NCBI GenBank assembly: GCA_016182605.1
Contig: JACPGE010000035.1
Span: 1 to 57,525, forward strand
Origin: Candidatus Hydrogenedentota bacterium
GTDB taxonomy: Bacteria; Hydrogenedentota; Hydrogenedentia; Hydrogenedentales; JAEUWI01
Direction: 5' to 3'
Length of the DNA: 57,525 bases
Position 1 is the first letter of the stretch. The number at the start of each line of letters is the position of its first letter. Positions 26,193-42,959 of the stretch are shown piece by piece. A program made the position numbers and the translations under genes. Under the pieces are notes generated by a model. It searched no databases and was not told where the DNA came from. It saw nothing but the letters and a program-made list of their open reading frames with translations.

Positions 26193-29100
26193 CTAGAGGC
26201 GCGAGCGCCGGTGAGCAGGCCATGCCAGAAGGAGCGCCAGGACGAGCAACACCGCGGCGGCATCGCCTGTTCCGGCGGCGCCGCCGTTCTGGGGCATACC
26301 GCAGAAGAGGCCCTTCGGCGGCGCGCCCTCGAAGAGCGGCAGCACCACCGAGGCCAGTTGTCCATCCGCCACGGTCACCTGCATGGTGCGCCGTGCAAAC
26401 CCGGGGGCAACCGCACTCAGCGAGTAGGTGTCTCCCACGACCGACGGGAAGGCGTAGACGCCGTCCACGTTGCTGGTGATCGTGCTGAAGGCGCTCGGGG
26501 TCAGGGTGACTTGGGCGTCCACAATGCGTTCCTGATCCACCCCGTTCCACACGGTCACGAAAAGCGACGCCGCGAGAATGGCCGATTGCAGATTGAAGAA
26601 GTTGCCGAAGTCGCCGTCTCCGTCGATCAAGGCATCGATTTCGGTTTCGTCTTGGGTGCTCCAGCCGTTGCTGCGCACACCCACGGTCGTGCCGCTGTTG
26701 TTGATGATTGCGCGGGCCGAGCCGTTCGGATCGAAATCGAAGGCGTTAAAGCCCGTTTCCGGATCGTTCTCATCTCCCAGTGTGGCGCCTTCGTCTACCA
26801 CGGCATTCGCGGTAATCTCCACGCCCGCGCGGGAGATGGCGGTGAACTGGTTGCGGCGCACGAGCGGGAAGACGCCGTCGATGCGGATCCCGGTGTCCAA
26901 ATTACGGAAGATGCAGCGTTCGATCACGGCGCCGCGTGTGATCACGCCGGCAGCGGCAATGCCGATGACGCCGAAGTGATTCTGGCCGTCGAAGACCACG
27001 TTGACCACGTGCATGTCAGAGCCGGTCGTGTCGAGCAGGATGGCGCTCTCGATGCCCGGCGAATAGATACTGAGGTCGGCCAGTGTTGCCCCGTGGGCGC
27101 CCTGAAGCAAGCCATTAATGATGACTAGATCACGGGTTGCCGCGCGGCCGTTCAGGCTCAGGCCCGGCTGCAACACCACGTCTTCGGGGTACGTGCCCGG
27201 CGCCAGCGAGAGGCGCAGCGGATCGAGTGCGGATACCGTGTGTTGTTCCAGGGCAAAGGCGATGGTGGCATAGGGCGCCACAGCGCTGCCGTTCCCCACC
27301 TGGTCTGAGCCAGTGGGCGACACAAACACGGTCCGGTTGGGATCGTTCGAATCACTCGGATCGCTGCCGCCGCGGAATTCTTCCGGGTTCGTCAGGCCGT
27401 CCTGGTCCAGGTCGTCCAGCGGTCCGCCCGGCACGAGGGGGTTTAGCCCGAAATTGAATTCGAAGGCATCGGGCAGGCCGTCTTCGTCGGAGTCCACCTT
27501 GGCAGGATCGGTGCCAATGCAGGATTCAATGCAGTTCGTCAGACCGTCGCCGTCGGAATCGGCCGTTTGGTTTACGCACAGGGCGGCGCAACTCTGGAAG
27601 GAATTGTCGCGTTCGAAGACGGGGAAGCCCAGGGCCGCGCAATCGGCCGTGCCGCTCACCACCAAGGCATCGCTGATGAGCTTGTCTGCGCCGGGCAAGA
27701 CGCCGAAGGTGGCGCAGAAGGTAAGGTTTTCGCCCGTCACGGCATAGGCGCCTTCAGGCAGCAAGATTTGTTCGGCGAGCGGCGCGCCGTCGACTTCGGT
27801 GACGATCAGTTCGATGCGTTCCAGATCGGGGAAGGTGCGGAAACTGCCGGAGAAGGAGAGTACGGGTTCGGTGGTCTGCTTCACGCCGTCCACATTCTCT
27901 TCCACAACGACCTGGAAGCGGTTTTCTTCGAATTCCAGGACGATGAAACCCGTTTCCCGATCGCCGATCCAGCGGCCCTGAAGCTCCGGATCGAATTCGG
28001 GTTGCACTTCCACGACGCAGTTGTCGGCCACCAGCACCGTGCGGGTCACCAAGGCACTCAGTTCGTCGCTGTCGCTGACCGAATAGGTGATCGTATAGGT
28101 GCCCGGCACGGCTGTGTCCAGGCCGCCGTTGTCCACCGTTGTAAGGCTGTTCAGGTTGCCGTCCGCGGCGTCGAAGGCCGTGAAGCCGGGGTCCTGGAAG
28201 GTGCTGTTACAGTTCAGATTCAGGGGATTCGCGCCAAACAGCAGAATCGTTGGATTGCAGTTGTCCGAAACGGTCACGGTGCGGGTCTTGACCGTGGTGG
28301 TTTCCTGAATGGTGTCGGACACCGTGTAGGTGAAGGTGTAGTCTCCCGGCGCGTCCGGGTTCAGGCCGCCGTCATCCACGACGACCAGGCTGGTGAGGTC
28401 GGTCCCCAGCACGTCCGCGGCAAAGAAGCCCGGCTCGACATAGTCTGTGTTGCAGCTCAATGTGAGCGGGTTGCTGCCGAAGAGCGTCAAGGTGGGATCG
28501 CAATTCTGCGTCACGACCACGGTCCGTTCCACCATGGTCAGGTTTTCATTGCTGTCCAGCACGGAATAGGTCACGGAGTACTGGCCCGGAGTGGCGACAT
28601 CCACGGCACTCGCGTCCACGTTTACGTTGGCCGTCAGGTCGCCATCCGCCACGTCGGAAGCGGAGAAGCCCGGCTCCACGTATTCGAATACGCAGTTCAC
28701 CGTCTGCGGATTGGCGCCGAAGAGGAAGATGGACGGCGCGCAGTTGTCGCTGACGATTACCTGGCGGGAAACCGTGGCGGCATTGCCGTCTTCGTCGATG
28801 ACTTCGTAATTGAGCGTGTAGCTGCCCGGGCTGTCCACGTCGATGACGTCGCCGGTGACGGTCACCTTCGAGGTCACGTCGCCATCGGCGGTATCGAAGG
28901 CAGAAAAGCCCGGCTCGACATAGTCCGTGTTGCAGTTCACAAAGAAGGTCTGGCCGCCGAAGAGGGTCAGCGTCGGGCCGCAATTGTCTTCGACGATCAC
29001 GGAACGCGTGACGGAGACCAGGTTGCCGTTACTGTCCCGCACGCCGTAGGTGCGCACGTAGGTACCAGGCACACTGGTGTCGAGTCCGCCGTCGTCCACG

Positions 29101-30539
29101 GTTACCTGCGCGGTGAGATCGCCGTCGCCTGCGTCGGTTGCAGTGAAGCCCGGTTCCACGAAAGGCGTGCTGCAGGCAATTGTCAGCGGATTGTTCCCCA
29201 ACAGGGTCAGCACGGGCAGGCAATTGTCCAGCACGACGATCGTCCGTGTTGCGGTTACGGGGCCATTTCCCGCGATATCGGTGATGCTGTATTCGATTTC
29301 ATAGGTGCCCGGCGCGGCCAGGTCCAGCGGTCCCACGTCCAACTGAACGCCGGCGCTGATGTCGCCGTCCACATCGTCTATCGCCAAGGCGCCAGGATCG
29401 TTGAAGGCGCCGCCGCAATTGATGGTTAGTGGATTGCCGCCCAGGAGCGACAGTTCCGGGGCGATCAGGTCTTCCACGAGCGTCCAGAGTTTTGCGGTGC
29501 CATCCGAGGAGCCTGTAAGCAGGACTTTCCCGTTCGCGGAAAAGGCCACCGCCGCCACCGATCCCTCGTGCGCGTCGAAACTGGTCACCAGCGCAGCATC
29601 CGCCGTGTTCCACAGTTTTGCGGTGCCGTCGAAGGATCCCGTCAGCGCCTGTGTGCCGTCGGGGGAGAGCGCCACTGCCCGGACCCCGCTGATGTGGCCC
29701 TCAAAGGTTTGGAGCAACGCGCCGGTCGAGCGATCCCACAATTTGGCCGTGCGATCATAGGAGCCCGTGATAACCTGGCTGCCCTCCGAGGAGAACTGGA
29801 CCGACGTGACAAATGCCGTGTGTCCGCCAAAGGTGCTGGTGGCGTTCCCGGTCTCCGTGTCCCACGTCTTGGCCGTGCCGTCCCATGATCCGGTGAGGAC
29901 CTCGTCCCCGTTCGGGGCATAATCCGCGGCGCGCACGTCGCCCAGGTGTCCGGCGAAGACCCGCACCAGCGCACCGGTTTCCACGTCCCACAGTTGGGCA
30001 GTATCATCCACGGAGGCCGTCAGGAGGTACGCCCCATCCGGAGAGAAGGCGACGGAACTCACCAGACTGCTATGTCCGGTAATGCTCAGAAGTTCTTGCC
30101 CCGAATCCACGTCCCAGATTTTGGCGGTGCGATCCCAAGAGCCGGTGGCGATTTGTTGACCATCCGGGGAGAAGGCGACGGAACTCACCACACTGGTGTG
30201 GCCGGAAAAAGTGAGCAATTGTTCGCCTGTGAAGATGCTCCAGAGTTTGGCGGCTTCGTCGTCGGAGCCCGTAAGCACCGTGGCCCCGTCGGGCGAAAAG
30301 GCAACCGCGCGCACGCCGGCGCCATGGCCCATGAAATCTTCCAGGATCTGTCCGGTTTCCCCGCCCTCCTGTTTGAGGATGCCCGGGAAGAGCGCGGCGG
30401 GCTGTACAACTCCGAATTCCCGCGCGGGTTGGCGCGCGGTTGCGCCTTGGGCGGTTAGGGTCCCAGTCAGGGCCAACGCCAGTAGCGCGGCGGCGCCAAT
30501 CCACGCTTTATCCATTAAACCCGAATTCCGGCCGGCCAT
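26193..30539 (-). CDS. Giant secreted WD40 / DUF5011 / beta-helix surface protein
   Basis: 1448 residues from ATG 30539, chosen for AAGGGAG eight bases upstream over an in-frame ATG at 30563. Signal peptide ending LTAQGATA. Order: seven WD40 repeats (each GH..xVxSVAFSPDG...TGSxDxTAKLW; ~70-375) forming one propeller; six DUF5011 Ig-like repeats of ~80 residues (~380-860), each with a Cys in NPLTxxC and another in the closing DNC; an unassigned beta domain; thrombospondin-3-like calcium repeats (DSDGDGLTNCIES, DSDEDGLPDAFEF, DLDQDGLTNPEEF); a DUF1565/right-handed beta helix (VFVSPTGSDQVGNG...); a carboxypeptidase-regulatory-like domain; and a tail FCGMPQNGG, hydrophobic helix LLVLALLLAWP, HRRSRL. 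The tail is laid out like MYXO-CTERM/Synerg-CTERM sorting signals. Probably a surface-anchored adhesin or scaffold. Confidence 0.9.
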   Translation of the reverse strand: MAGRNSGLMDKAWIGAAALLALALTGTLTAQGATARQPAREFGVVQPAALFPGILKQEGGETGQILEDFMGHGAGVRAVAFSPDGATVLTGSDDEAAKLWSIFTGEQLLTFSGHTSVVSSVAFSPDGQQIATGSWDRTAKIWDVDSGQELLSITGHSSLVSSVAFSPDGAYLLTASVDDTAQLWDVETGALVRVFAGHLGDVRAADYAPNGDEVLTGSWDGTAKTWDTETGNATSTFGGHTAFVTSVQFSSEGSQVITGSYDRTAKLWDRSTGALLQTFEGHISGVRAVALSPDGTQALTGSFDGTAKLWNTADAALVTSFDAHEGSVAAVAFSANGKVLLTGSSDGTAKLWTLVEDLIAPELSLLGGNPLTINCGGAFNDPGALAIDDVDGDISAGVQLDVGPLDLAAPGTYEIEYSITDIAGNGPVTATRTIVVLDNCLPVLTLLGNNPLTIACSTPFVEPGFTATDAGDGDLTAQVTVDDGGLDTSVPGTYVRTYGVRDSNGNLVSVTRSVIVEDNCGPTLTLFGGQTFFVNCNTDYVEPGFSAFDTADGDVTSKVTVTGDVIDVDSPGSYTLNYEVIDEDGNAATVSRQVIVSDNCAPSIFLFGANPQTVNCVFEYVEPGFSASDVADGDLTANVNVDASAVDVATPGQYSVTYSVLDSNENLTMVERTVVVTQNCDPTLTLFGSNPLTLSCNTDYVEPGFFAADVLGTDLTSLVVVDDGGLNPDAPGDYTFTYTVSDTIQETTTVKTRTVTVSDNCNPTILLFGANPLNLNCNSTFQDPGFTAFDAADGNLNSLTTVDNGGLDTAVPGTYTITYSVSDSDELSALVTRTVLVADNCVVEVQPEFDPELQGRWIGDRETGFIVLEFEENRFQVVVEENVDGVKQTTEPVLSFSGSFRTFPDLERIELIVTEVDGAPLAEQILLPEGAYAVTGENLTFCATFGVLPGADKLISDALVVSGTADCAALGFPVFERDNSFQSCAALCVNQTADSDGDGLTNCIESCIGTDPAKVDSDEDGLPDAFEFNFGLNPLVPGGPLDDLDQDGLTNPEEFRGGSDPSDSNDPNRTVFVSPTGSDQVGNGSAVAPYATIAFALEQHTVSALDPLRLSLAPGTYPEDVVLQPGLSLNGRAATRDLVIINGLLQGAHGATLADLSIYSPGIESAILLDTTGSDMHVVNVVFDGQNHFGVIGIAAAGVITRGAVIERCIFRNLDTGIRIDGVFPLVRRNQFTAISRAGVEITANAVVDEGATLGDENDPETGFNAFDFDPNGSARAIINNSGTTVGVRSNGWSTQDETEIDALIDGDGDFGNFFNLQSAILAASLFVTVWNGVDQERIVDAQVTLTPSAFSTITSNVDGVYAFPSVVGDTYSLSAVAPGFARRTMQVTVADGQLASVVLPLFEGAPPKGLFCGMPQNGGAAGTGDAAAVLLVLALLLAWPAHRRSRL

Positions 30540-31120
30540 AATTGTATCTCCCTTAGCATTCATGCAGTTGGATACAGACTGTATCTACAGGCGGGGAAAG
30601 CCTTTGTATACTTTTTGCCCCCGCAAAAAGCCATCGCCACGCCACAAGCAGTCCGAGTTTGCGGTCACGTAGTAGTCATCAGTGACTCGACAATCTTAAG
30701 ACAAACCCAGACTGAATGCAATTGGGGCAACAAACTACTTATGCGTCATTTCGCCACCTTGGGCGCGCCAAGCCTCCACACACCTACAATACCCTCCATG
30801 ATCGAAATTGACACACGAGTATGGGGCCTCCCTGATTGCTCGCCCCGATCCTGGCCGTGCTCCCGGCCCCGTTCCGTACAGAGCAGCCGGCGCCGGCACG
30901 ATTGAATTGAGCAGTATACGCGTCTTGTGCTACATTCCCGGCGGCAGCAGCGGGTGGCGCAGAGGCGGCGTCATTCGTCGAACTGGACCCCGGCAGCCCA
31001 GTGCAATGGCGGTCCCGGTCGGGGCATTCAGGGGCTCCAAGTTTATCCAGCCGGCTCCGCAACGAAACTCCACACGGGTGAAGGGGGTCCATCGTGTTCA
31101 AACTTCAGGGAGCCGCAAGC
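30540..31120. promoter_or_regulatory. Divergent control region with two hairpins, no gene
   Basis: About 580 bases between the divergent giant surface protein (minus) and ThuA (plus). Near the surface-protein start are GATACAG-A-CTGTATC (30571-30585) and CTTTTTGC-CCCC-GCAAAAAG (30611-30630). On the plus strand TTGAGC (30907-30912), 18 bases, TACATT (30931-30936) is a weak promoter candidate for thuA. I see no coding potential. Confidence 0.45.
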
Positions 31121-32158
31121 GTGAAAAGAATCCGTACAGCCCTCACCGTGTTACTGGCGATCCTGGCGTTCCCGTCCGTGGCGCGCGCCCAGGGGAGCGT
31201 GGTGTATGAGGGCGCCGGTGGGTTGGGCCAGGGCAAGCACATCGTGTTCATTGCCTCGGATCATGAGTACCGGGGCGAGGAGACCCTTCCCGCACTGGCG
31301 CGCATACTGGCCAAGCACTATGGTTTCAAGTGCACGGTGATCTTTGGGCTGAATCCGGAAGATGGCACGATACTTCCCGGCAGCAGCCACCTCGGCGGCC
31401 TGGAAGTGCTGGGGGATGCGGACCTGCTCGTGCTTTTCATGCGCTTCATCGACATGCCCGAAGAAGAGATGCGGCATTTCGCCGCGTATGTGGATCGGGG
31501 CGGCCCGATCATGGGGTTGCGCACGTCGACCCACGCCTTCAAGATCCCTGAAGGCCGCGCTTACCACGCGTATGATTTTCAGTATCCCGGGAAAGAATTC
31601 CATCTGGGCTTCGGGCGCCAGGTGCTCGGTGAAACCTGGGTGAGCCACTACGGCGAGAATCACCGCCAAAGTTCCATCCTCGTCGCCGAACAGGAGCATA
31701 AGGAACACTCGGTGCTCCGGGGGGTGGGCGCGATGCACACGCAGGCGGGGGGCTACACGGCGAACCCCATTGCGGGCAGCACGATTCTCGCACGCGGCAT
31801 CATACTGAACGGGATGGAGATCGATGCGCCGGTGGATACCACCAAGGAACTCATGCCCGTCGTCTGGGTGCGGGATTACGCGAGCAAGTCGGGAAAGATC
31901 GCGCGGATCTTCACCACGACACAGGGGGCTTCTGAAGATATTCTGGATGAGAACTTCCGGCGCATGCTCGTGAATGCGCACCTTTGGTGTCTTGGCATGG
32001 AAGACCAGATCAAGGCGGACAACGAAGTGGGCTTCGTGGGGCCGTTTCATGCGACGCCTTTTGCGTTCGAAGGCTACCGCAGAGGCGTGAAGCCCGCAGA
32101 CCTGGCCGGCTGGGACACACCGATTATGAATCCCGCGGCGCCGGTCCGGGCCGAGTAA
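31121..32158 (+). CDS. Secreted ThuA-like protein
   Basis: 345 residues from GTG 31121 (CAGGGAG eight bases before); an upstream GTG at 31094 would place extra residues ahead of the signal peptide TVLLAILAFPSVARA. The ThuA fold, related to class I glutamine amidotransferases, is evident in HIVFIASDHEYRGEETLPALARIL, DADLLVLFMRFIDMPEEEM, RGGPIMGLRTSTHAFK and PVVWVRDYASKSGKIARIF. Most ThuA-like proteins lack the amidotransferase nucleophile and are linked to sugar (trehalose-related) use or exported oxidoreductase loci. PVC genomes carry many, often beside Planctomycete-type dehydrogenases, as here. Stops 53 bases before the next gene. Confidence 0.9.
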   Translation: MKRIRTALTVLLAILAFPSVARAQGSVVYEGAGGLGQGKHIVFIASDHEYRGEETLPALARILAKHYGFKCTVIFGLNPEDGTILPGSSHLGGLEVLGDADLLVLFMRFIDMPEEEMRHFAAYVDRGGPIMGLRTSTHAFKIPEGRAYHAYDFQYPGKEFHLGFGRQVLGETWVSHYGENHRQSSILVAEQEHKEHSVLRGVGAMHTQAGGYTANPIAGSTILARGIILNGMEIDAPVDTTKELMPVVWVRDYASKSGKIARIFTTTQGASEDILDENFRRMLVNAHLWCLGMEDQIKADNEVGFVGPFHATPFAFEGYRRGVKPADLAGWDTPIMNPAAPVRAE

Positions 32159-32211: not shown

Positions 32212-35200
32212 ATGAACCGTATGATGCGTTGCCTGACGGGTGCTTTTGTGGCGGCACTGCTGCTGTGTGCCCTCCCCGTTCCCGCCCAGATGGAGTTCGA
32301 ATCCGGCGATCGCATTGCGATCGTCGGCAATGCCCTTCCCGATCGCATGCAGCACGACGGCTGGCTCGAAAGCTACCTGAACGGCGCCTATCCAGACAAG
32401 AAACTCGCGATCCGCAACTTGGGCTTCTCCGGCGATGAGGTCGCGCATCGCCCGCGCGAAGAGAATTTCATGAGCGCGGACGACTATCTCAGCCACGTGA
32501 AAGCCGATGTCATTTTCGCCTTCTTTGGGTACAACGAGTCCTTCGATCACGATCCCGAAAGCTTTAAGGCAGAATTGACGCAATTCATCGAAGAGACGCG
32601 CGCCAAGCAGTACAACGGCAAGTCCGCGCCCCGCATCGTGCTCTTCTCGCCGATAGCCTTTGAAGACTTGCACACCCCGAATTTGCCGGATGGAAAAGAA
32701 AACAATCTCTGGCTGTCCATCTACACCGACGCGATGGCGCGGGTCGCCCAGGCAAAGGGCGTGACGTTCGTAGACCTCTTTGCCCCGTCGAAGCAGCTCT
32801 ATGAAACGAGCGAGGGCCCTTTCACCATCAATGGCGTGCATCTGAATTCCGAGGGCAACAACGCAATCGCCCGGGTGATTGTCGAGGCCCTGGCCGGCAA
32901 CGTGCCCGACCGGCCCTACGACGCGATCCGCAGCGCGGTCCTGGAAAAGAACTGGTGCTGGTTCAACCGTTACCGCGCCACGGACGGCAACGATGTCTGG
33001 GGGAGCCGCGCGCCGCTGGAATTCGTCGACAAGCAAACCAACAAAGAGGTGCTTCAACATGAGTTGGTCATGCTCGACGTGATGACAGAGAACCGCGATG
33101 TGGTGATTTGGAACGCGGTTCAGGGGGAAGACACCAAGCCCGACGACAGCAACGTGCCCGATCCGATCGCGGTGAAGACGAATTATCAGCCCAGCGAAAA
33201 GAACGGCGCGCTGGCCTACACGAAGCCTGAAGACGGCGTGAAAACACTAACGCTACAGGACGGCCTGGAAGCGAACCTCTTCGCCTCGGAAGCAATGTTC
33301 CCCGAACTGGTCAATCCGGTGCAGATGGATGTGGACACGAAGGGGCGGCTCTGGGTCGCGGCCTGGCAGACCTACCCCAAGTGGCAGCCAGACAAGGAGA
33401 TGCTCGACCGCCTGCTCATTCTCCCGGATGAAGACCGCGACGGTGTGGCCGACAAGGCTATCACTTTTGCATACGTCCACAACCCCACCGCATTCACCTT
33501 CTGGAACGGCGGCGTGATTGTGGCTTCCGCCCCCAACTTCTGGTATTTGAAAGACACCGACGGAGACGACGTGGCGGACCTGCGCGAGATCTGGCTCTCC
33601 GGTCTGGATTCGGCCGACACCCACCACAGCGCGAACGGCTTTGACTATGGCCCGGATGGCTACATCTACTATCAGCGCGGCATTTTCAACGTGAGCAACG
33701 TGGAAACCCCTTGGCAGGCGCCCCAACTCTCCGGCACTTCCGCAATGTACCGGTTCAATCCCAGGACGCACCGCTTCAGCATTCACGCGGAGAATCCCCC
33801 CAATCCGCACGGCGGCGATTTCGACTACTGGGGCTACCACTTCGCGACGGACGCGACGGGCGGCAACGCGTTTCAGGTGCGGATGGATGAGGAGGGCGGA
33901 TTCAAGATGCACGAATTGTTGAAGAAGACCGTGCGCCCGGTGCCATCGAGCGGCATTCTCTCCAGCACACACTTCCCTGAGAAGAGCAACGGCAACTACC
34001 TGATCCTGAACGCCATCGGTTTTCTGGGCATCAAGCAATACACCCTGCAAAACACGGATGGCGTTGTGTGGGGCACCGAAACGGACGATCTCCTCGTCTC
34101 CAGTGACGGCAATTTCCGCCCGTCCGATTTCAAGTTTGGCGACGACGGCGCGTTGTATGTCGCGGACTGGGCCAATGCGCTTATCGGCCACATGCAGCAC
34201 AACGTGCGCGATCCCAGCCGCGATCATGAGCACGGGCGCGTGTACCGCGTTACGGTCAAGGGCCGCCCGCTTGAAGCGCATGTGGAGATCGACGGACAGC
34301 CCATCGAAGCGCTGCTCGAGGTCTTGAAGCATCCCACGAATGGGGTGCGGTTGCGCGCGCGGATCGAGTTGAGCGAGCGCAAGAGCGACGAGGTGATCGC
34401 CGCGGTCCAACAATGGATTAAGCAGTTCGACGGTGGCAAGCGGGAAGACGCCCACCACCTGCTGGAGGCGTTGTGGCTGCACCAACAGTTCAATGTGGTC
34501 AATGAAGGACTGCTCACCGTCCTGTTGAATTCGCCCGAGCCCCATGCGAAGCGCGCCGCCGGGCGGGTGCAGCGCATCTGGGAGATTGAAGGGCAACTCA
34601 ATGCGCCTGCCGTTGCGATGGCGGGGCACGGGGGCGGCCACCATGGAGCGAAGCCCAGTGCGCTTCACGACAGCCTCGCTCAGGAGCCGTCCCCGCCGCC
34701 GGCTATGGTGGATGGCGTCTACGTGGTGCATATTCAGACGCTCAAGGAGCAGATGCGCTATGATCGCACGCAGTTTGCCGTTACGCCCGGCATGAAGGTG
34801 CGGCTGATCTTCAAGAACCCCGATTGGATGGACCACAACCTTATACTGGTTCAGCCCGGCGCTGCTTCGGACGTGGCCACGGCGGCGCTGATGCTTGGCG
34901 CGGAGGGCATTGCGAAGCAATGGACGCCCGAAAGCGGCCAGATTATTTTTGCGTCGAAGGTGTTGCCAGTGGGCGGATCGCAAACCATCGAATTCGATGC
35001 GCCCGCGGAGAAAGGGGCCTACCCGTATATTTGCACCTACCCCGGGCATTGGATGCTGATGAACGGGATTATGCACGTGGTGGACGACATGGAGGTGTGG
35101 GCGAAGGCCAACCCGGACACGTCGTCGCGGATCACGATTGGCAGAGAGGTGGTTCAGGAATGGACCGTGGCGGATCTAAGCCCGGATCTCGGCAAACTGA

Positions 35201-35640
35201 CCGAGGACCGATCGATGGAGCACGGGAAGGAAGTCTTCGCCGCCGCAACGTGTATTGCGTGTCACAAGGCCGGGGTGGAGGGGGGCGTCATTGGTCCCGA
35301 CCTGGCGGGCGTGGCCACGCGGCTGGATGCGGCGGCCATGCTCATGGAACTCCTTGAGCCTTCAAAGGTGATCAAGGAAGAGTATAAGCCGTGGTACATC
35401 GAGCTGAAGAGTTTTGAGGACATCACCGGGCAGATCGTGGAACAAACGGACGATTTCGTGCGGGTGGTTCAGGACCCGCTTAAAGACGCGGAAGGCGTGA
35501 AAATATCCCGCAAGGATATTGCGCGTATGAGCACCTCGGATCTGTCGAGCATGCCAGCGGGCCTGCTCAACACCTTCACGCGCGAGGAGATTCTGGACCT
35601 GATGGCCTACCTGCGCGCGATAGAAGCGAAGGGTCCCTGA
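32212..35640 (+). CDS. Secreted fusion: GDSL-like, PVC dehydrogenase propeller, cupredoxin and cytochrome c
   Basis: 1142 residues from ATG 32212 (GGAGAAG upstream); the open frame extends 5' but inside thuA. Order: signal peptide (ALPVPAQ); SGNH/GDSL-like domain (~27-240; GDRIAIVGNALPDRMQ, FFGYNESF, NGVHLNSEGN); PVC-type membrane-bound dehydrogenase beta-propeller (~330-690; LFASEAMFPELVNPVQMDVD, GRLWVAAWQTYPKW, DEDRDGVADKA, GFDYGPDGYIYYQRG, SSTHFPE); HEAT-like helices; azurin-like cupredoxin (~835-965) with His875, Cys941, His946, Met950 (CTYPGHWMLM) as a full type 1 copper set; Planctomycete-type cytochrome c with C1014-IAC-H1018. It should act outside the cytoplasm, moving electrons from a propeller-bound substrate through copper and heme. 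The substrate is unknown. Follows thuA by 53 bases. Confidence 0.9.
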   Translation: MNRMMRCLTGAFVAALLLCALPVPAQMEFESGDRIAIVGNALPDRMQHDGWLESYLNGAYPDKKLAIRNLGFSGDEVAHRPREENFMSADDYLSHVKADVIFAFFGYNESFDHDPESFKAELTQFIEETRAKQYNGKSAPRIVLFSPIAFEDLHTPNLPDGKENNLWLSIYTDAMARVAQAKGVTFVDLFAPSKQLYETSEGPFTINGVHLNSEGNNAIARVIVEALAGNVPDRPYDAIRSAVLEKNWCWFNRYRATDGNDVWGSRAPLEFVDKQTNKEVLQHELVMLDVMTENRDVVIWNAVQGEDTKPDDSNVPDPIAVKTNYQPSEKNGALAYTKPEDGVKTLTLQDGLEANLFASEAMFPELVNPVQMDVDTKGRLWVAAWQTYPKWQPDKEMLDRLLILPDEDRDGVADKAITFAYVHNPTAFTFWNGGVIVASAPNFWYLKDTDGDDVADLREIWLSGLDSADTHHSANGFDYGPDGYIYYQRGIFNVSNVETPWQAPQLSGTSAMYRFNPRTHRFSIHAENPPNPHGGDFDYWGYHFATDATGGNAFQVRMDEEGGFKMHELLKKTVRPVPSSGILSSTHFPEKSNGNYLILNAIGFLGIKQYTLQNTDGVVWGTETDDLLVSSDGNFRPSDFKFGDDGALYVADWANALIGHMQHNVRDPSRDHEHGRVYRVTVKGRPLEAHVEIDGQPIEALLEVLKHPTNGVRLRARIELSERKSDEVIAAVQQWIKQFDGGKREDAHHLLEALWLHQQFNVVNEGLLTVLLNSPEPHAKRAAGRVQRIWEIEGQLNAPAVAMAGHGGGHHGAKPSALHDSLAQEPSPPPAMVDGVYVVHIQTLKEQMRYDRTQFAVTPGMKVRLIFKNPDWMDHNLILVQPGAASDVATAALMLGAEGIAKQWTPESGQIIFASKVLPVGGSQTIEFDAPAEKGAYPYICTYPGHWMLMNGIMHVVDDMEVWAKANPDTSSRITIGREVVQEWTVADLSPDLGKLTEDRSMEHGKEVFAAATCIACHKAGVEGGVIGPDLAGVATRLDAAAMLMELLEPSKVIKEEYKPWYIELKSFEDITGQIVEQTDDFVRVVQDPLKDAEGVKISRKDIARMSTSDLSSMPAGLLNTFTREEILDLMAYLRAIEAKGP

Positions 35641-35689: not shown

Positions 35690-36589
35690 TCAGCTCGCCA
35701 GGGCGCCTCGGCCGTTGATGCGTTCGACGCTTACCCCGACGGAGAGGTATTGATTGCCGCCGCCGAGCATGACGCCGCGGATGGGGCAGACTTCGTCGTA
35801 GTCGCGGCCCCAGGCGAGGGTGATGTGCTCGTCGGAAGCGATCAGGTTGTTGGTGGGGTCCAGATCCACCCAGCCGAAATTTCCCGTGTAGACGGAGAGC
35901 CACGCGTGGGAGGCCTGTGCGCCCAGCATGGGGAGCGCGCCGGTGGAGGATGTGGGCACGATGTAGCCGCTCACATAGCGCGCGGGTATGCCCAAACTGC
36001 GCAAGCACGCGATCTGCAACTGGGCGAAGTCCTGGCAGACGCCGCGCCGTTGTTTTAGTACTTCCTCCAGCGGTGTGGCGAGCGTCGTCGCGGTGGGGTC
36101 ATAGGCAAACTCGGCATAGATGCGTTGCATGAGATCGATCGCGCCGAGTAGCACGGGCTGACCCGCCGGGAAAGAGGGCCTCGCGAAGGCCGCCATTTCG
36201 TCATTGGGCTTGATGGAACTGGAGGCGAAGACGAACTGGCTGGCGTCGTTGCTTTCCAGGGTGCGCGGGAGCAGCACCTCGTCGCGGATCTCTTCCCAGG
36301 GCGGCGTCTGTGTGGGCTCCGGCGTGAGCAGGGGCTGTACCTCCACCTCGCTAATCACCGTGATGATCAACGTGCTGTGCTCTTTTTGCACCGTGAAGTA
36401 ACTGCACAGATTCCCAAAGTAGTCGGTGTGGTGAAAGACCTCGTTCGCCGTACGGGGCTGCACCTCCAGCCGCGAGCTGATGCAGCGCTGGTTCGGGCAG
36501 TTGCGCGGCGTGAGATGCGCGCGGTTGTAACAGATGGGCACGGGCGCGTCGTAGTCGTAGCGCGTGGTGTGGGAGACCCGGTAGTTCAT
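35690..36589 (-). CDS. Transglutaminase-like cysteine protease family protein
   Basis: 299 residues. N-terminal beta domain (MNYRVSHTTRYDYDAPV, typical for the bacterial transglutaminase N-domain) and a papain-like transglutaminase core with Cys185 (GVCQDFAQL), His228 (ASHAWLSV) and Asp244 (DLDPTNN). No signal peptide. In the predicted peptide-modification clusters described by Iyer and colleagues, this protein accompanies the ATP-grasp/alpha-E ligase and is thought to cleave or transfer the attached peptide. Its start overlaps the end of the upstream ligase gene by four bases (ATGA), so they are translated together. Confidence 0.93.
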   Translation of the reverse strand: MNYRVSHTTRYDYDAPVPICYNRAHLTPRNCPNQRCISSRLEVQPRTANEVFHHTDYFGNLCSYFTVQKEHSTLIITVISEVEVQPLLTPEPTQTPPWEEIRDEVLLPRTLESNDASQFVFASSSIKPNDEMAAFARPSFPAGQPVLLGAIDLMQRIYAEFAYDPTATTLATPLEEVLKQRRGVCQDFAQLQIACLRSLGIPARYVSGYIVPTSSTGALPMLGAQASHAWLSVYTGNFGWVDLDPTNNLIASDEHITLAWGRDYDEVCPIRGVMLGGGNQYLSVGVSVERINGRGALAS

Positions 36590-39198
36590 GTGGCGATCTC
36601 CGACTGACGCGCTGTGAAACGGCGCGCGGGCCCGGTGTGGTTGAAGTAGTGCCGGGCGAGAAAATCGGAGAAGCGCGGCAGGCCATCCAGGATAAGCGGC
36701 AGGAATTCGGCCAGCTTCGGGCGCCGGTTGTCTTTGCTCAGGCGGCCCAGCGCGTGCACGTCGGTGAGGCGCAGTTCCGCAAGGATCCGCACGATGATCT
36801 GTTCCTCATCCGAAAGAAGGCCGCGCGGCATGGTGTGGGGGAGTTCCAGAAGGTCGTGGCGGATGGAATGCAGTTGAAAGGCCACCGAACGCGGATTGGA
36901 CTCGTCGCAGAGCAGGAGATCGAGAATGGCCGACGCGCGGAAGTTTGCGCCATAGCGCGCGCGGTAGGTCATCGGGCTGTCATTGATGATCAGGACGGCC
37001 TGGAGGGTCGATTCCTCCGGAAGGTGGGGCGACACACAGACGCGCTCGATGAGCCGTGCGGTGTGCAGCGCGCGCTCCAGGCGCCGGCCCATGTTCAGGA
37101 AGAGCCAGCCGCGTTCGCGCGTCATGTTTTCCATGGTGAGTCCGCTGAAGGCCGCCAGGCCCACGATGACCTCGTCGAGAATCGCGAGCGCGTCGGACAC
37201 GCTCTGGGGGGTGTGCTGCCGCCGTGCCATCAGCAGGTCGTAGCTGATGCCGCTGATGATGCGCCAGTCATCGCGCGAGATGCGATCGCGCACGACCCAC
37301 GCGGTGCGCTGCAATGCGCGCAAATTTGAGACGACGCTGCCGGGCAATTCCTCGTTGAAGACGGCCGCAAGCAGGCTGCGCTCGATGGCGGCGCTGTCTT
37401 CACAATCCTGGTTGGGGCGCAGCGCCTCGATCCCGGTACTGCGGTCCACGGCCTGCCCCGGCACGAGTTCGGGCCAGCACTGCTGGATGGCCCGGAGCAT
37501 GCTCTTCAGTTCAGGGATGCTCATGAGTCCCGCTTCGTCGGTAAAGCGGTTGGCCAGATGGCGCAGCATGCGCACGACGCCATCGGTTCGCTCGCAATAG
37601 CGGCCCAGCCAGAAGAGGTTGTCCGCCAGACGGCTGGGCAATTCCATGGGAGATCGCCGCAGAATGATCGGCTGGCCGGGTGGCGGAAGGAGGGAGAAGG
37701 GCTCCACGGGACGGTCGGAGCGCACCCAGGTGTCTTTGCTGCCGCTGCCGCTCTGCATGGTGAGGTTGCGCAAATCGCAGGAGGAACTGAATCGCGTCAG
37801 GCCACCTGGCATGGTATGGAACGCGCCGTCGCCCGCGCTCAGCGTATAGGTCCGAAGGGAGATATACCGCTGTTGCAGCGAATTGTCGATCCAGGCCGGG
37901 GCGGTCGAAAGGGTCACGGGTTCCAGTCCGACAAAGGCATGCGGCTCCGCGGCAATACGCGCGCGCAGGGTGGCGCGTTGCTCCGCGCTCAGTTCGGCAA
38001 CGTGAATCAGCGTGTTGGGGTGCAGGCTCCAGGCCGGGGCAATGTAGAGCGAGTCGAAGTTCGCATCGACGTAGGCGCGATCCTCGGGCAGGGCGCACCA
38101 CCACGAGGGGGCCGAGGGCAGCCGGAGATCCTCGCCGAGAAAATAGCGCGACAGCCGCTGCAGGCTGGCCGCCACGGGACGCACCTCAAGCACTGCCGAG
38201 CCGAGCATGTTGCTGACGGCGACGTTGTTCTGGTGCAGCGTCTGGATCAGCCCCACGATGCCCAGGGTCGAATCGTTGCGCAGTTCGAGGGGATCGCAAA
38301 AATCGTCGTCGAGCCGGCGGAAGATCACATCGACGCGCTGCAGGCCTTCGAGCGTCTTGAGGTAGACCGAGCGATCGCGCACAGTGAGGTCTTCGCCCTC
38401 GGTCAGGGTGAAACCGAGATAGCGCGCCAGGTAGGCATGCTCGAAATAGGTTTCATTGTAGGGGCCGGGCGTGAGCAGAGCGACGTTGGGGGAATCCGTG
38501 GGGCGGGGCGCCAGTTCGCGCAGCACGCCGCGCAGGGTTTCGAAGAAGGATGCGAGCCGCTGCACCTGACAATCCCGGATGAGGTTCGGGAAGACGCGCG
38601 ACATGATGATCCGGTTTTCCAGGGAGTAGCCCATGCCCGAGGGGGTCTGGGTGCGATCACCAAAAACTGCCCAGGCGCCCGAGGGCGTGCGCAGCATGTC
38701 CGCGCCGTAGAGGGTCACGTGCCCGCTCTTTTGCAGGGGCGCGCCATGACATGCGCGCAGGAACTTCGGATTGGCATGCACGAACTCCACCGGGAGGACG
38801 CCCTCTTTGATGATCCGCTGCGGTCCGTAGATGTCGGCGGCAATGAGGTTGAGCAAGCGGGCGCGCTGGGCGAGCCCGGCCTCCACCAGTTGCCACTCGG
38901 AAGCGGAGATCAAATAGGGGATGGTGTCCAGCGCCCAGGGGCGGTCCACACCGAGGGGATCGGCGTAGACGTTGTAGGTGATGCCGTTTTCATGGATAAG
39001 GCGGTGCGCCAGGGTGCAGCGCCGCGCCATCTCCTCCGGGCCGAAGCGGTTGATGGTGGCGAGATAGTCCTGCCAGTGCGTGCGCAACTCGGGCCCCGGG
39101 CGGCACACTTCATCGAACACGGAGGGATTGCCATTCCAGGTGTTCAGACACGCGGCGGCATAGGCCTCTGCGAGGGCAGCGGTCTGTTCAACGGCCAT
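36586..39198 (-). CDS. Circularly permuted ATP-grasp / alpha-E fusion (predicted peptide ligase)
   Basis: 870 residues. The first ~480 are the circularly permuted ATP-grasp domain (DUF404/DUF407): GITYNVYADPLGVDRPW, YGPQRIIKEG, SGMGYSLENRIIMSRVFP, LTPGPYNETYFEHAYLARYLG, and FCDPLELRNDSTLGIVGL. From ~500 comes the all-helical alpha-E domain (DUF403): RLADNLFWLGRYCERTDGVVRMLRHLANRF ... MENMTRERGWLFLNMGRRLERA ... ESNPRSVAFQL. These are separate genes in many bacteria and fused here. Proposed function is ATP-dependent synthesis of a peptide or its attachment to a protein; no member is well characterised. Starts divergently from the DUF2126 gene. Confidence 0.93.
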   Translation of the reverse strand: MAVEQTAALAEAYAAACLNTWNGNPSVFDEVCRPGPELRTHWQDYLATINRFGPEEMARRCTLAHRLIHENGITYNVYADPLGVDRPWALDTIPYLISASEWQLVEAGLAQRARLLNLIAADIYGPQRIIKEGVLPVEFVHANPKFLRACHGAPLQKSGHVTLYGADMLRTPSGAWAVFGDRTQTPSGMGYSLENRIIMSRVFPNLIRDCQVQRLASFFETLRGVLRELAPRPTDSPNVALLTPGPYNETYFEHAYLARYLGFTLTEGEDLTVRDRSVYLKTLEGLQRVDVIFRRLDDDFCDPLELRNDSTLGIVGLIQTLHQNNVAVSNMLGSAVLEVRPVAASLQRLSRYFLGEDLRLPSAPSWWCALPEDRAYVDANFDSLYIAPAWSLHPNTLIHVAELSAEQRATLRARIAAEPHAFVGLEPVTLSTAPAWIDNSLQQRYISLRTYTLSAGDGAFHTMPGGLTRFSSSCDLRNLTMQSGSGSKDTWVRSDRPVEPFSLLPPPGQPIILRRSPMELPSRLADNLFWLGRYCERTDGVVRMLRHLANRFTDEAGLMSIPELKSMLRAIQQCWPELVPGQAVDRSTGIEALRPNQDCEDSAAIERSLLAAVFNEELPGSVVSNLRALQRTAWVVRDRISRDDWRIISGISYDLLMARRQHTPQSVSDALAILDEVIVGLAAFSGLTMENMTRERGWLFLNMGRRLERALHTARLIERVCVSPHLPEESTLQAVLIINDSPMTYRARYGANFRASAILDLLLCDESNPRSVAFQLHSIRHDLLELPHTMPRGLLSDEEQIIVRILAELRLTDVHALGRLSKDNRRPKLAEFLPLILDGLPRFSDFLARHYFNHTGPARRFTARQSEIAT

Positions 39199-39307
39199 TC
39201 AGCTAGACTCCCCGGGGTGGAATTCCGTTTGCGCACGGTGCATCCGCGTGGCAAAAGGATCCCACGCACCGGGGGGCATGACGCAAGTTTGGTGCCACTT
39301 TGGCCCT

Positions 39308-39324
39308 GCGGCACGATAGTTGCT
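39308..39324 (+). promoter_or_regulatory. Predicted sigma-54 (RpoN) promoter
   Basis: GCGGCACGATAGTTGCT matches the consensus YTGGCACGRNNNTTGCW at all but the first two positions; the essential GG (39310-39311) and GC (39322-39323) are correctly spaced. It points at the DUF2126 gene, giving a leader of about 210 bases. The 350-base divergent region (39199-39548) holds nothing else I can assign. An enhancer-binding-protein site was not identified. Confidence 0.55.
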
Positions 39325-39548
39325 CAACTTGGGGTGAATCGGAAGGCAGAAGCCCTCTTCGGCGGCAAAGCACGCGGGATCGGCGCGTAATCGCGGCCTG
39401 TGCAAGTGGATGCGATACGTTATTGCCCTACCATTGTGTAGGGACTTGCCGGGCATCCGCCCAGATGGAAGGGCGCTTCTGCACGTTGTGGGCCTTGGGT
39501 TGGTGTCACCCAGACACCGTGTCATCAATGGGATTGGAATTTTTTCAG

Positions 39549-42500
39549 ATGTCGATTCATGTTGCTTTGCACCACAAAACCAGTTACCGCTACGACCGCC
39601 CCGTGCAGCTCGGCCCGCAGGTCGTGCGCCTGCGCCCCGCGCCCCACAGCCGCACGCGCGTGCTCAGCTATTCGTTGAAAATCCATCCGGGAGACCACTT
39701 CGTCAACTGGCAGCAAGACCCCTTCAGCAACCATCTGGCGCGTCTGGTATTCCCGGAGAAATCCCGTGCGTTCGAAGTGGAGATCGACCTGGTTGCGGAT
39801 ATGCAGGTGATTAACCCCTTCGATTTCTTTCTGGATGAGGAGGCGCGGGAATGGCCCTTCGCCTATACCGCGGGGATCAAGCACGAACTGGAGCTTTTCC
39901 TCAAGACGCCGAAGCCCGGTCCGCTGCTCACCGAGTATCTGAAGAAGACGCCCACGAAGACTTCCACTACGATCAATTTCCTCATGGACCTGAACATGCA
40001 GTTGCAGAAGGATATCGCCTACATCGTGCGCATGGAGCCCGGCGTGCAGTCGAGTGAGGAGACCCTCATGCTGGGCCGCGGATCCTGCCGCGATTCGGCG
40101 TGGCTGCTGGTGGAGGTGTTGCGTAACCTCGGTCTGGCCGCGCGCTTCGTCTCGGGCTATCTGATCCAGCTCACGCCAGACGTGAAATCCCTGGATGGAC
40201 CGAGTGGCCCGGAGAACGACTTCACCGATCTGCACGCGTGGACCGAAGTGTTTCTGCCCGGCGCAGGCTGGATCGGTTTCGACCCCACCTCCGGGCTGGC
40301 CGCGAGTGAAGGACACATCCCCCTGGCCTGCACGCCGGAGGCCTCCAGCGCCGCGCCCATCTCTGGCGCGGTCGAAGAATGCAAAGCCGAGTTCAGCCAT
40401 GAGATGTCGGTGCGCCGCGTGCATGAACTGCCGCGGGTCACCAAGCCCTACAGCGAAGCGGCCTGGCGGGAGATCGAAGAACTCGGCCACCGCGTCGACG
40501 CGGATCTCGGCAAGATGGACGTGCGGTTGACCATGGGCGGCGAACCCACCTTTGTGGGGATAGACCAGGTGGACCTGCCCGAGTGGAATATCGAGGCGCT
40601 TGGCCAGCACAAGTGGGAGCGGTCGCTCGAACTCTTCAAGCGGCTCAGCAACCGTTTTGCAACGGGACCCCTCACGCACCATGGCCAGGGCAAGTGGTAT
40701 CCCGGCGAGCAATTGCCGCGTTGGGCGCTGGATTGTTACTGGCGCAAGGATGGCAAGGCGATCTGGCGCGATCCGGAACTCCTTGCCGATGCCCTGAAAG
40801 ATTACGGCTTTGGCACGACCGAGGCCGGCGCATTCACCGCTGCCCTGGCGGATCGCCTTGAGGTGGCCCCGGGGCACACCGTGCCCGGCTATGAAGACAC
40901 CTACTATTACCTCTGGCGCGAGCGCTGCCTGCCGACCAACGTGGATGTCGCGGAACCGCGCGTGAAGGACCCCCTGGAGCGCGCGCGCATTGCCAAGGTT
41001 TTCGCGCACGGGCTCGGCAAACCCATTGGCTATGCCCTGCCCCTGCGCCGCGCCTGGGAAGGCGGCGCGCGGCGCTGGTTCACCGGGCCGTGGTTCTTCC
41101 GCTCCGAACAGATGTATCTCATCCCCGGCGATTCCCCCATGGGCCTGCGCCTGCCGCTGGACAGCATTCCCTGGGTGGCCGAGGGCGACCACTGGGGCGT
41201 GCACGAAACCGATCCCATGGCGCCCCGGGCGCCCCTGCCCGACTTCTTCCCGCCGGAATTGCCGCGCGGCATTTTCCGTGGTGCGGGCCGTGGCGCGGGC
41301 ACGCCGGAACCGGCGCGGTTGCGCATGCAGCACAAGGGACTGGGGGCGGGCGGGGGCGACCCGGAGCAGGATCAGGATCGCTGGCGGCGGCACCCGGCCA
41401 CAGCGCCGCTCGGCGCGCAATCGCTGACGCGTTTCCAGTCCGCGGCGAACGTGGTCCGCACGGCGCTCACTGTGGAGCCGCGCCATGGGCGGCTGCACAT
41501 CTTCATGCCGCCGGTGGAGACAGTGGAGGACTACCTCGATCTGATCACCGCCGTCGAAGACACGGCGGCCAAGATGCACATGCCGGTGATCATCGAAGGG
41601 TACAAACCGCCCTCCGATCCGCGCCTGAACAACTTCAGCATCAAGCCCGATCCCGGCGTGATCGAAGTCAACATTCACCCGTCTTCCTCGTGGGAGGAAC
41701 TGGTGGAGAACGCCACCATTCTCTATGACGAGGCGCGGCTGAGCCGGCTGGGCACCGAAAAGTTTATGCTCGACGGCCGGCACACGGGCACCGGCGGCGG
41801 CAACCACGTGCTGCTGGGCGCGGCCACGCCCGCGGACAGCCCTTTCCTGCGCCGCCCGGATCTCCTCAAAAGCCTCGTGTCGTACTGGCACAACCATCCC
41901 TCGCTCTCCTACATCTTCTCGGGCATGTTTGTCGGGCCGACGAGCCAGGCGCCCCGGGTGGACGAGGGTCGAAACGACATGGTGTCCGAGTTGGAACTGG
42001 CCTTTGCCCAGGTCAGCAGCGGTGCGCCGAAACCCCCGTGGTTTGTCGACCGCGCATTGCGCAACCTCCTCGTGGATCTCACGGGCAATACGCACCGCAG
42101 CGAGTTCTGCATCGACAAACTTTTCTCGCCCGACAGCGCGGCGGGCCGCATGGGCCTGGTGGAACTGCGCGCGCTGGAGATGCCGCCCCACGCGCGCATG
42201 AGTCTGGCGCAGCAACTGCTCATTCGCTCCCTCGTTTCGCGCTTCTGGAAAGAGCCCTACACCGTGCCGCTGGTGCGCTGGCACACGGAACTCCACGACC
42301 GCTTCATGCTGCCGCACTTCGTCGAGCAGGATTTCCGCGATGTGCTGGAAGAGCAGAGCATCATCGGCTATCCCTTCGACTACACGTGGTACTTCCCCCA
42401 CATGGAGTTCCGCTTCCCCCGCTGCGGCAGCGTCACCTATCGCGGGGTGGACGTGGAATTGCGCATGGCCATCGAGCCCTGGAACGTGCTCGGAGAAGAA

Positions 42501-42959
42501 CCCGCGGGCGGCGCCATGAGCCGCTTCATCGACTCCTCCGTCGAGCGTATGCAGATCAAGGTGCGCGGCATGGTGGATTCGCGCCACGTCATCACCTGCA
42601 ACGGCTTCCGCGTGCCACTGCATCCTACGGGCGTGGCGGGCGAATATGTGGCGGGTGTGCGCTACCAGGCGTGGGAGCCGGTCTCCTGCCTGCACCCGGG
42701 CGTGCCCGTCAACACGCCGCTCGTGGTGGACGTGGTGGACACCTGGAACGGACGCAGCATCGGCGGCTGCACCTATCACGTGGCCCATCCCGGCGGGCTG
42801 AGTTACGATCAGTTTCCCGTCAACGCCTTTGAGGCGGAATCGCGGCGCATCAACCGCTTCACCTCCCTGGGGCACACCCCGGGCCCCCTGGAAGTGATGC
42901 CGGGCCGGGCGCATCCCGAGTATCCCTTCACCCTCGATCTGCGCTGGGAGGGGGTGTAG
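39549..42959 (+). CDS. Transglutaminase-DUF2126 protein of the ATP-grasp/alpha-E cluster
   Basis: 1136 residues from ATG 39549 (MSIHVALHHKTSYRYDRP is the normal family start); the longer upstream frame lacks similarity. Residues ~1-260 are a transglutaminase-like domain with Cys180 (GSCRDSAWLLVEV), His229 (DLHAWTEVF) and Asp245 (GFDPTSGL). The rest is DUF2126: LTMGGEPTFVGIDQVDLPEWN, KWYPGEQLPRWAL, YYLWRERCLPTNVDV, RLHIFMPPVETVEDYLDL, TGGGNHVLLGAATPADSPF, GMFVGPTSQAPRVDE, and VAHPGGLSYDQFPVN. DUF2126 resembles glutamate-cysteine-ligase or glutamine-synthetase-like enzymes, so peptide or amide bond formation is plausible. It lies head to head with the ligase/transglutaminase pair. Confidence 0.93.
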   Translation: MSIHVALHHKTSYRYDRPVQLGPQVVRLRPAPHSRTRVLSYSLKIHPGDHFVNWQQDPFSNHLARLVFPEKSRAFEVEIDLVADMQVINPFDFFLDEEAREWPFAYTAGIKHELELFLKTPKPGPLLTEYLKKTPTKTSTTINFLMDLNMQLQKDIAYIVRMEPGVQSSEETLMLGRGSCRDSAWLLVEVLRNLGLAARFVSGYLIQLTPDVKSLDGPSGPENDFTDLHAWTEVFLPGAGWIGFDPTSGLAASEGHIPLACTPEASSAAPISGAVEECKAEFSHEMSVRRVHELPRVTKPYSEAAWREIEELGHRVDADLGKMDVRLTMGGEPTFVGIDQVDLPEWNIEALGQHKWERSLELFKRLSNRFATGPLTHHGQGKWYPGEQLPRWALDCYWRKDGKAIWRDPELLADALKDYGFGTTEAGAFTAALADRLEVAPGHTVPGYEDTYYYLWRERCLPTNVDVAEPRVKDPLERARIAKVFAHGLGKPIGYALPLRRAWEGGARRWFTGPWFFRSEQMYLIPGDSPMGLRLPLDSIPWVAEGDHWGVHETDPMAPRAPLPDFFPPELPRGIFRGAGRGAGTPEPARLRMQHKGLGAGGGDPEQDQDRWRRHPATAPLGAQSLTRFQSAANVVRTALTVEPRHGRLHIFMPPVETVEDYLDLITAVEDTAAKMHMPVIIEGYKPPSDPRLNNFSIKPDPGVIEVNIHPSSSWEELVENATILYDEARLSRLGTEKFMLDGRHTGTGGGNHVLLGAATPADSPFLRRPDLLKSLVSYWHNHPSLSYIFSGMFVGPTSQAPRVDEGRNDMVSELELAFAQVSSGAPKPPWFVDRALRNLLVDLTGNTHRSEFCIDKLFSPDSAAGRMGLVELRALEMPPHARMSLAQQLLIRSLVSRFWKEPYTVPLVRWHTELHDRFMLPHFVEQDFRDVLEEQSIIGYPFDYTWYFPHMEFRFPRCGSVTYRGVDVELRMAIEPWNVLGEEPAGGAMSRFIDSSVERMQIKVRGMVDSRHVITCNGFRVPLHPTGVAGEYVAGVRYQAWEPVSCLHPGVPVNTPLVVDVVDTWNGRSIGGCTYHVAHPGGLSYDQFPVNAFEAESRRINRFTSLGHTPGPLEVMPGRAHPEYPFTLDLRWEGV

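What the first reader, a model, noticed from the sequence alone, without database searches (positions are those of the whole stretch)
32212..35640. Single-chain esterase-like, propeller, copper and heme fusion
One 1142-residue exported protein joins a GDSL/SGNH-like domain, a PVC dehydrogenase propeller, an azurin-type site (His875, Cys941, His946, Met950) and a CIACH cytochrome c. Propeller-to-cytochrome fusions are known in Planctomycetes; adding both a GDSL-like hydrolase in front and a complete type 1 copper site could form a self-contained deacylate-oxidise-transfer machine. All copper and heme ligands are present by eye.
Basis: partly seen in the sequence, partly recalled or inferred. 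Interest (0 to 1): 0.75.

Follow-up and report, generated by a model that had tools for sequence, protein, structure and literature searches.

The report
Four-domain copper-heme dehydrogenase-like protein
A single exported bacterial protein joins an esterase-shaped domain that has lost its active site, a sugar-dehydrogenase-like propeller, a blue-copper site and a heme site; it is one of hundreds of relatives in at least six bacterial phyla, often paired with a ThuA protein, and looks like an uncharacterised oxidising enzyme with a built-in electron wire.

Summary
The four-domain chain is real: window 32212-35640 (+) encodes one 1142-aa exported protein with an SGNH-fold domain, a six-bladed propeller (DUF7133/TIGR02604), an auracyanin/azurin-type cupredoxin and a TIGR02603 cytochrome c. 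All copper ligands and the CxxCH are present, as is an invariant candidate axial Met1114.

The interpretation needs correcting. (1) The SGNH domain is a predicted pseudo-esterase: the nucleophile is Ala41 and the triad Asp is Asn207. In 64 aligned relatives Asn207 is invariant and position 41 is Gly/Ala/Ser/Thr. The 'deacylate' step is not supported. (2) The fusion is not unique: one scan found 341 relatives; of 75 best ones with an intact 3' end, 28 have copper plus heme and 45 have copper without cytochrome.

Best reading: a periplasmic sugar/polyol-dehydrogenase-like protein with an intramolecular Cu-to-heme relay, ThuA acting on the same substrate. PQQ use is doubtful (no PqqE in the genome; two PQQ-contact Arg replaced). 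Catalysis, cofactor and electron path are inferred. The kind is known (PVC-type CxxCH proteins); I found no published description of this architecture.

The parts
31094..32158 (+). ThuA-like protein gene (354 aa from GTG 31094; a start at GTG 31121 is equally possible), exported, ends 53 bases before the fusion gene
   Evidence: Pfam ThuA 31.7 bits, just under the cut-off 33.4; 44-78% identical to ThuA genes adjacent to, or domains fused with, relatives; the homologous fused domain of L121 scores 45.1 bits
32212..35640 (+). fusion protein gene, 1142 aa
32212..32289 (+). signal sequence, aa 1-26 (by eye: MNRMMRCLTGAFVAALLLCALPVPAQ)
   Evidence: sequence; model helix 2-18
32290..32901 (+). pseudo-SGNH domain, aa 27-230
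   Evidence: Lipase_GDSL_2 51.2 bits; model matches BT4096 7br2 with Z 22.0, 2.6 A, 249 residues
32332..32334 (+). Ala41 in place of the catalytic Ser
32830..32841 (+). NGVH, aa 207-210: Asn207 in place of the triad Asp, His210 kept
33244..34266 (+). six-bladed propeller, aa 345-685 (DUF7133/TIGR02604), likely catalytic domain
   Evidence: PQQ sugar dehydrogenase 3a9g Z 24.3
33622..33627 (+). invariant His471-His472; His472 aligns with YliI H147 (catalytic-His position of soluble glucose dehydrogenases)
34279..34611 (+). helical HEAT-like region, aa 690-800
   Evidence: helices in model; HEAT_2 significant in paralogues, only 12.9 bits here
34714..35082 (+). auracyanin/azurin-type cupredoxin, aa 835-957, ligands His875, Cys941, His946, Met950
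35206..35622 (+). cytochrome c, aa 999-1137, with CIACH 1014-1018, beta-strand insertion about 1061-1108 and Met1114
   Evidence: TIGR02603 89.4 bits; Kustd1711 7zs0 E 7.9e-13

Best explanation
A periplasmic, dehydrogenase-like protein of the PVC-type CxxCH family that works together with a ThuA protein. The propeller is the most likely catalytic part: it would oxidise a sugar- or polyol-like substrate near His472 and hand electrons to the type 1 copper; the copper would pass them to a high-potential His/Met heme c, possibly calcium-tuned as in Kustd1711, and this to soluble cytochrome c or a terminal oxidase (or, where the cytochrome is missing, the copper site hands over directly). The SGNH domain is a pseudo-enzyme that has kept its pocket (Gly74, Asn108, His210) but lost the nucleophile and would bind or position substrate or partner. 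ThuA would process the same substrate. Shown by computation: domains, metal ligands, loss of the triad, conservation, ThuA pairing. Inferred: catalysis, substrate, cofactor, electron direction, role of the pseudo-SGNH.
For: Propeller fold best matched by PQQ sugar dehydrogenases (3a9g Z 24.3, 2ism 23.6); profile alignment to E. coli aldose sugar dehydrogenase YliI (E 7e-4, one comparison) puts invariant His472 on YliI H147. The propeller is the most conserved domain, 65% mean identity to the window protein. Copper ligands and auracyanin fold. Cytochrome homologous over its full length to Kustd1711, whose His/Met hemes sit near +350 mV (PMC11791136). All four domains conserved in seven other full-length chains of the phylum. 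ThuA fused or adjacent in 53 of 80 relatives. Published survey links these cytochrome proteins to carbohydrate-binding modules and sulfatases (PMC5615132).
Against: Lactonase propellers (SMP-30/DFPase) score only 1-2 Z lower. Two PQQ-contact Arg of YliI/sGDH are Pro530 and Ser638 here, and PF07995 does not match this protein. No PqqE in the own genome and in only 2 of 68 genomes of the phylum. Cu-heme distance not measured; cytochrome predicted with low confidence. The hhalign probability to YliI is low (25.7%). Substrate unknown.
Confidence: 0.42

Rival explanations
1. The propeller is not an oxidoreductase but a metal-dependent hydrolase of the SMP-30/gluconolactonase/DFPase type; the copper and heme domains serve another redox partner.
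For: DFPase, SMP-30 and lactonase propellers reach Z 22-23, close to the dehydrogenases at 24; PQQ site altered; no PqqE.
Against: Covalent fusion to two one-electron carriers is hard to explain for a hydrolase; the invariant His472 falls on the dehydrogenase catalytic His.
Confidence: 0.2
2. A non-catalytic electron conduit or sensor: propeller, pseudo-SGNH and HEAT-like region only bind a glycan or a partner protein, and copper plus heme pass electrons between outside partners.
For: Pseudo-SGNH, altered PQQ site, helical HEAT-like region, and a modular cytochrome.
Against: The propeller is the most conserved part, with invariant His, Asp, Arg and Asn residues, as expected of an active site rather than a scaffold.
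Confidence: 0.2
3. One reading: a deacylase followed by oxidation and electron transfer in one chain, the SGNH domain working without the usual triad.
For: SGNH fold well conserved (54% mean identity), with Gly74, Asn108 and His210 kept; 12 of 64 aligned relatives have Ser at position 41.
Against: Ala41 and Asn207 in the window protein; position 41 is Gly, Ala, Ser or Thr in the alignment and Asn in L135; Asn207 invariant.
Confidence: 0.06

Closest known systems
PVC-type heme-binding CxxCH proteins (NCBIfam TIGR02604 + TIGR02603; probably the PSCyt3 group of He et al. 2017, PMC5615132 - that equivalence is from memory)
   Same: Propeller and C-terminal cytochrome both over the family cut-offs; exported; multi-domain; function unknown
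   Different: Adds a conserved pseudo-SGNH domain and a complete type 1 copper domain, with ThuA fused or adjacent in most relatives
PQQ-dependent soluble aldose/glucose dehydrogenases (3a9g, 2ism, E. coli YliI)
   Same: Six-bladed propeller fold (Z 24.3); His472, Asn531 and Arg636 align with family motif residues
   Different: Two PQQ-contact Arg replaced, PF07995 not matched, no PqqE in the genome; extra domains
Auracyanin/azurin blue copper proteins (6kol, 2aan)
   Same: Fold and all four ligands
   Different: Covalently part of a 1142-aa enzyme-like chain; below the azurin equivalog cut-off
Kustd1711, diheme cytochrome of Kuenenia stuttgartiensis (7zs0, PMC11791136)
   Same: Cytochrome domain aligns over its full length, E 7.9e-13, including the region of the beta-strand 'nose' insertion
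   Different: One heme instead of two; fused to other domains; calcium site not tested
BT4096 GDSL-family enzyme (7br2)
   Same: SGNH fold (Z 22.0) and GN-x block I instead of GD-x
   Different: BT4096 keeps Ser (GNSIT) and Asp (DRIH); the window protein has Ala and Asn
ThuA proteins (PF06283)
   Same: The upstream gene and the N-terminal domain of the fused relatives
   Different: Window gene slightly under the Pfam cut-off; exported

Membership tests
PVC-type heme-binding CxxCH protein | TIGR02604 propeller over its curated cut-off | tested here: met
   200.5 bits against 122.2
PVC-type heme-binding CxxCH protein | TIGR02603 heme-binding domain with CxxCH | tested here: met
   89.4 bits against 68.15; CIACH 1014-1018
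Catalytic SGNH/GDSL hydrolase | SGNH fold / Pfam match | tested here: met
   51.2 bits against 32.9; Z 22.0 to 7br2
Catalytic SGNH/GDSL hydrolase | Catalytic Ser in block I | tested here: not met
   Ala41
Catalytic SGNH/GDSL hydrolase | Triad Asp (DxxH) in block V | tested here: not met
   Asn207, invariant in 64 of 64
Catalytic SGNH/GDSL hydrolase | Triad His and oxyanion Gly/Asn | tested here: met
   His210 64/64, Gly74 62/64, Asn108 63/64
Type 1 copper cupredoxin (auracyanin/azurin) | His, Cys, His, Met ligand set | tested here: met
   His875, Cys941, His946, Met950
Type 1 copper cupredoxin (auracyanin/azurin) | Cupredoxin fold | tested here: met
   6kol E 5.7e-22 by profile; 1.3 A over 125 columns by model
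Azurin proper (TIGR02695 equivalog) | Curated equivalog cut-off | tested here: not met
   34.1 bits against 105.1
PQQ sugar dehydrogenase (PF07995) | Six-bladed propeller of the family | tested here: inconclusive
   Z 24.3 to 3a9g, but SMP-30/DFPase propellers at 22-23
PQQ sugar dehydrogenase (PF07995) | Match to the Pfam family | tested here: not met
   PF07995 not among matches up to E 1
PQQ sugar dehydrogenase (PF07995) | Catalytic His and PQQ-contact Arg residues | tested here: inconclusive
   His472, Asn531 and Arg636 kept; two Arg replaced by Pro530 and Ser638; which residues contact PQQ is from memory
PQQ sugar dehydrogenase (PF07995) | PQQ supply (PqqE) in the genome | tested here: not met
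   Best own match 75.7 bits against cut-off 381.35; uptake from outside not excluded
SMP-30/gluconolactonase/DFPase propeller | Fold and metal ligands in the central tunnel | tested here: inconclusive
   Z 22-23; metal ligands not checked, no coordinates
Kustd1711-type cytochrome c | Homologous cytochrome c with beta-strand insertion and His/Met heme ligands | tested here: met
   E 7.9e-13 over the whole domain; strands 1061-1108 and Met1114
Kustd1711-type cytochrome c | Calcium ion beside the heme, potential about +350 mV | not testable with these tools
   Needs spectroelectrochemistry; site uses main-chain oxygens (PMC11791136)
ThuA (PF06283), upstream gene | Pfam gathering score | tested here: inconclusive
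   31.7 against 33.4 bits; the homologous fused domain of L121 scores 45.1

The most novel reading that the evidence does not exclude
A widespread, undescribed class of periplasmic propeller oxidoreductases that does not use PQQ in the usual way, holds its substrate with a pseudo-SGNH domain, works with ThuA, and carries its own wire from a blue-copper site to a calcium-tuned heme in one chain.
Probability: 0.2. Interest if true: 0.7.

Novelty: new variant of a known kind. Interest (0 to 1): 0.42.

Why it matters
[quoted passage not shown] This subfamily makes the question testable: a fixed set of metal sites that report on turnover by colour, a conserved candidate catalytic His, a solved relative for nearly every domain, and a fused or adjacent partner (ThuA). 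It also warns against annotating these proteins as GDSL esterases.

Tried and rejected
Active GDSL esterase: rejected for the window protein because Ser and Asp are replaced. Unique or rare fusion: rejected, 341 relatives in one scan and 16 of 68 genomes of the phylum. Nitrous oxide reductase (propeller plus cupredoxin) ranked high in Foldseek, but with rmsd of about 26 A over about 700 columns, i.e. not one common arrangement. Conserved wider operon: only ThuA recurs; the other neighbours tested (TonB receptors in L063 and L072, sulfatases, MFS transporter, polysaccharide deacetylase, photolyase) differ by lineage. PQQ by co-occurrence: both genomes with PqqE have a relative, as do 14 of the other 66, too few to tell. 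Cu-to-heme distance: model coordinates could not be read, and the cytochrome part has low pLDDT. Literature searches for this architecture found nothing; the library lacks most subscription papers. Sequence search of the PDB with the propeller profile gave nothing useful. A search centred on a Planctomycetota genome was not accepted by the tool and not repeated.

Full report
What is there. The reading frame at 32212-35640 (+) encodes 1142 aa with a signal sequence. Pfam and NCBIfam find an SGNH domain (51.2 bits, cut-off 32.9), the DUF7133/TIGR02604 propeller (218.9 and 200.5 bits) and the TIGR02603 cytochrome (89.4 bits). The copper domain scores below the azurin equivalog cut-off (34.1 against 105.1 bits), but the family profile matches auracyanin 6kol at E 5.7e-22, and the AlphaFold model (mean pLDDT 83) superposes on 6kol at 1.3 A. 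His875, Cys941, His946, Met950, the CxxCH and Met1114 are invariant among aligned relatives that have those domains.

The esterase domain is a pseudo-enzyme. Block I is GNAL and block V is NGVH. In 64 aligned sequences position 41 is Gly 34, Ala 16, Ser 12, Thr 2, and position 207 is Asn in all; the pocket residues Gly74, Asn108 and His210 are kept. The nearest solved sequence, BT4096 (7br2), has GNSIT and DRIH, so Asn after the block I Gly belongs to the wider family, while loss of the Ser and of the block V Asp does not. The domain is as conserved as the helical region (54% mean identity to the window protein). It therefore looks selected for something other than serine hydrolysis; binding of substrate or partner is my inference.

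Distribution. One scan of 84,980 species genomes with short exact peptide patterns gave 341 relatives, from records labelled Hydrogenedentota, Planctomycetota, Verrucomicrobiota, Bacteroidota/Rhodothermales/Balneolaceae, Acidobacteriota and Gemmatimonadetes, and from the cultured Neorhodopirellula pilleata. Of the best 80, 75 have a complete 3' end: 28 have copper and heme, 45 copper only, 1 heme only (L106), and 1 neither in that frame (L057, whose remaining part lies in another frame with ambiguous bases). In the window's own phylum 16 of 68 genomes have a strong match; seven full-length chains from other genomes carry all four domains with all metal ligands. The phylum is Hydrogenedentota by inference: contig G053:C514 has the length of the named record behind L052 and gives the same match. 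On a quick tree of the shared core the cytochrome is gained or lost several times; some rows scored there as lacking it are truncated by contig ends, so that count is too high.

ThuA. A ThuA-like gene ends 53 bases upstream of the fusion gene. Among the 80 relatives ThuA is fused at the N-terminus in 27, directly upstream in 17, downstream in 6 and divergent in 3. Fused forms read ThuA - F5/8-C - pseudo-SGNH - propeller - cupredoxin (- cytochrome) in one chain of about 1500-1750 aa. In the own genome a second PVC-type protein (contig C5) also has a ThuA gene next to it. Fusion in one lineage and adjacency in others is the classical sign of a shared function. ThuA is linked in rhizobia to 3-keto derivatives of disaccharides (own knowledge, not tested), which would fit sugar oxidation.

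The propeller. VIA-align places PQQ sugar dehydrogenases first (3a9g Z 24.3, 2.9 A, 282 residues), with SMP-30/DFPase lactonases 1-2 units lower, so the fold alone does not settle the activity. Profile comparison with E. coli YliI (E 7e-4 for one comparison, probability 26%) aligns the invariant His472 with YliI H147, the place of the catalytic His of soluble glucose dehydrogenase (identity of that His from memory), and Asn531 and, by the spacing to the GxDG motif, Arg636 with residues of that family; two other Arg of the PQQ pocket are Pro530 and Ser638 here (the list of PQQ contacts is from memory). The own genome, 97.9% complete, has no PqqE over the cut-off, and nor do 66 of the 68 genomes. 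So the propeller is probably an oxidoreductase, but its cofactor is open.

The wire. The cytochrome domain aligns over its full length with the C-terminal domain of Kustd1711 (7zs0, E 7.9e-13); both have a beta-strand insertion (ours in models; the 'nose' domain in PMC11791136). Kustd1711 has His/Met hemes of about +350 mV, raised by a calcium ion 6.9 A from the iron. If this holds here, copper-to-heme transfer would be downhill (blue copper potentials from general knowledge).

Verdict. A real, well-conserved four-domain redox protein of a known kind without known function. Shown: sequence anatomy, conservation, distribution, pairing. Inferred: dehydrogenase activity (moderate), Cu-to-heme relay (moderate), sugar-like substrate (moderate to weak), PQQ (weak).

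Noticed in passing
L054:4878-10487 and L055:552-6161: 1870-aa relatives from two Planctomycetota MAGs with about 750 extra residues between the copper domain and the cytochrome, without any Pfam match.
   Followed up: no
L121:7943-11158, L126:8737-12081, L080:8384-12340: Second, distant copies (29-33% identical) with the same SGNH-propeller-cupredoxin order lie directly or almost directly downstream of the first copy.
   Followed up: partly
L063:1784-3907 and L072:1066-3270: TonB-dependent receptor genes directly upstream of ThuA and the fusion gene in Bacteroidota/Rhodothermales loci; frames of similar length stand at that place in L064, L070, L084 and L091 (not identified).
   Followed up: partly
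window 35690-42959: Cluster of transglutaminase, circularly permuted ATP-grasp/alpha-E and transglutaminase-DUF2126 amidoligase genes, probably an unrelated peptide-modification cluster.
   Followed up: no
window 26193-30563 (-): 1456-aa surface-type protein with WD40 repeats followed by six Ig-like repeats (Bact_surface_Ig-like).
   Followed up: no
G000:C60:8589-12433 (-): A paralogue in the own genome in which the SGNH-like domain is a separate 376-aa frame beside a propeller-cytochrome protein of 1196 aa: the unfused arrangement.
   Followed up: no
L057:4965-8461: A Hydrogenedentota relative split between two frames with ambiguous bases, probably a sequencing or assembly artefact.
   Followed up: no
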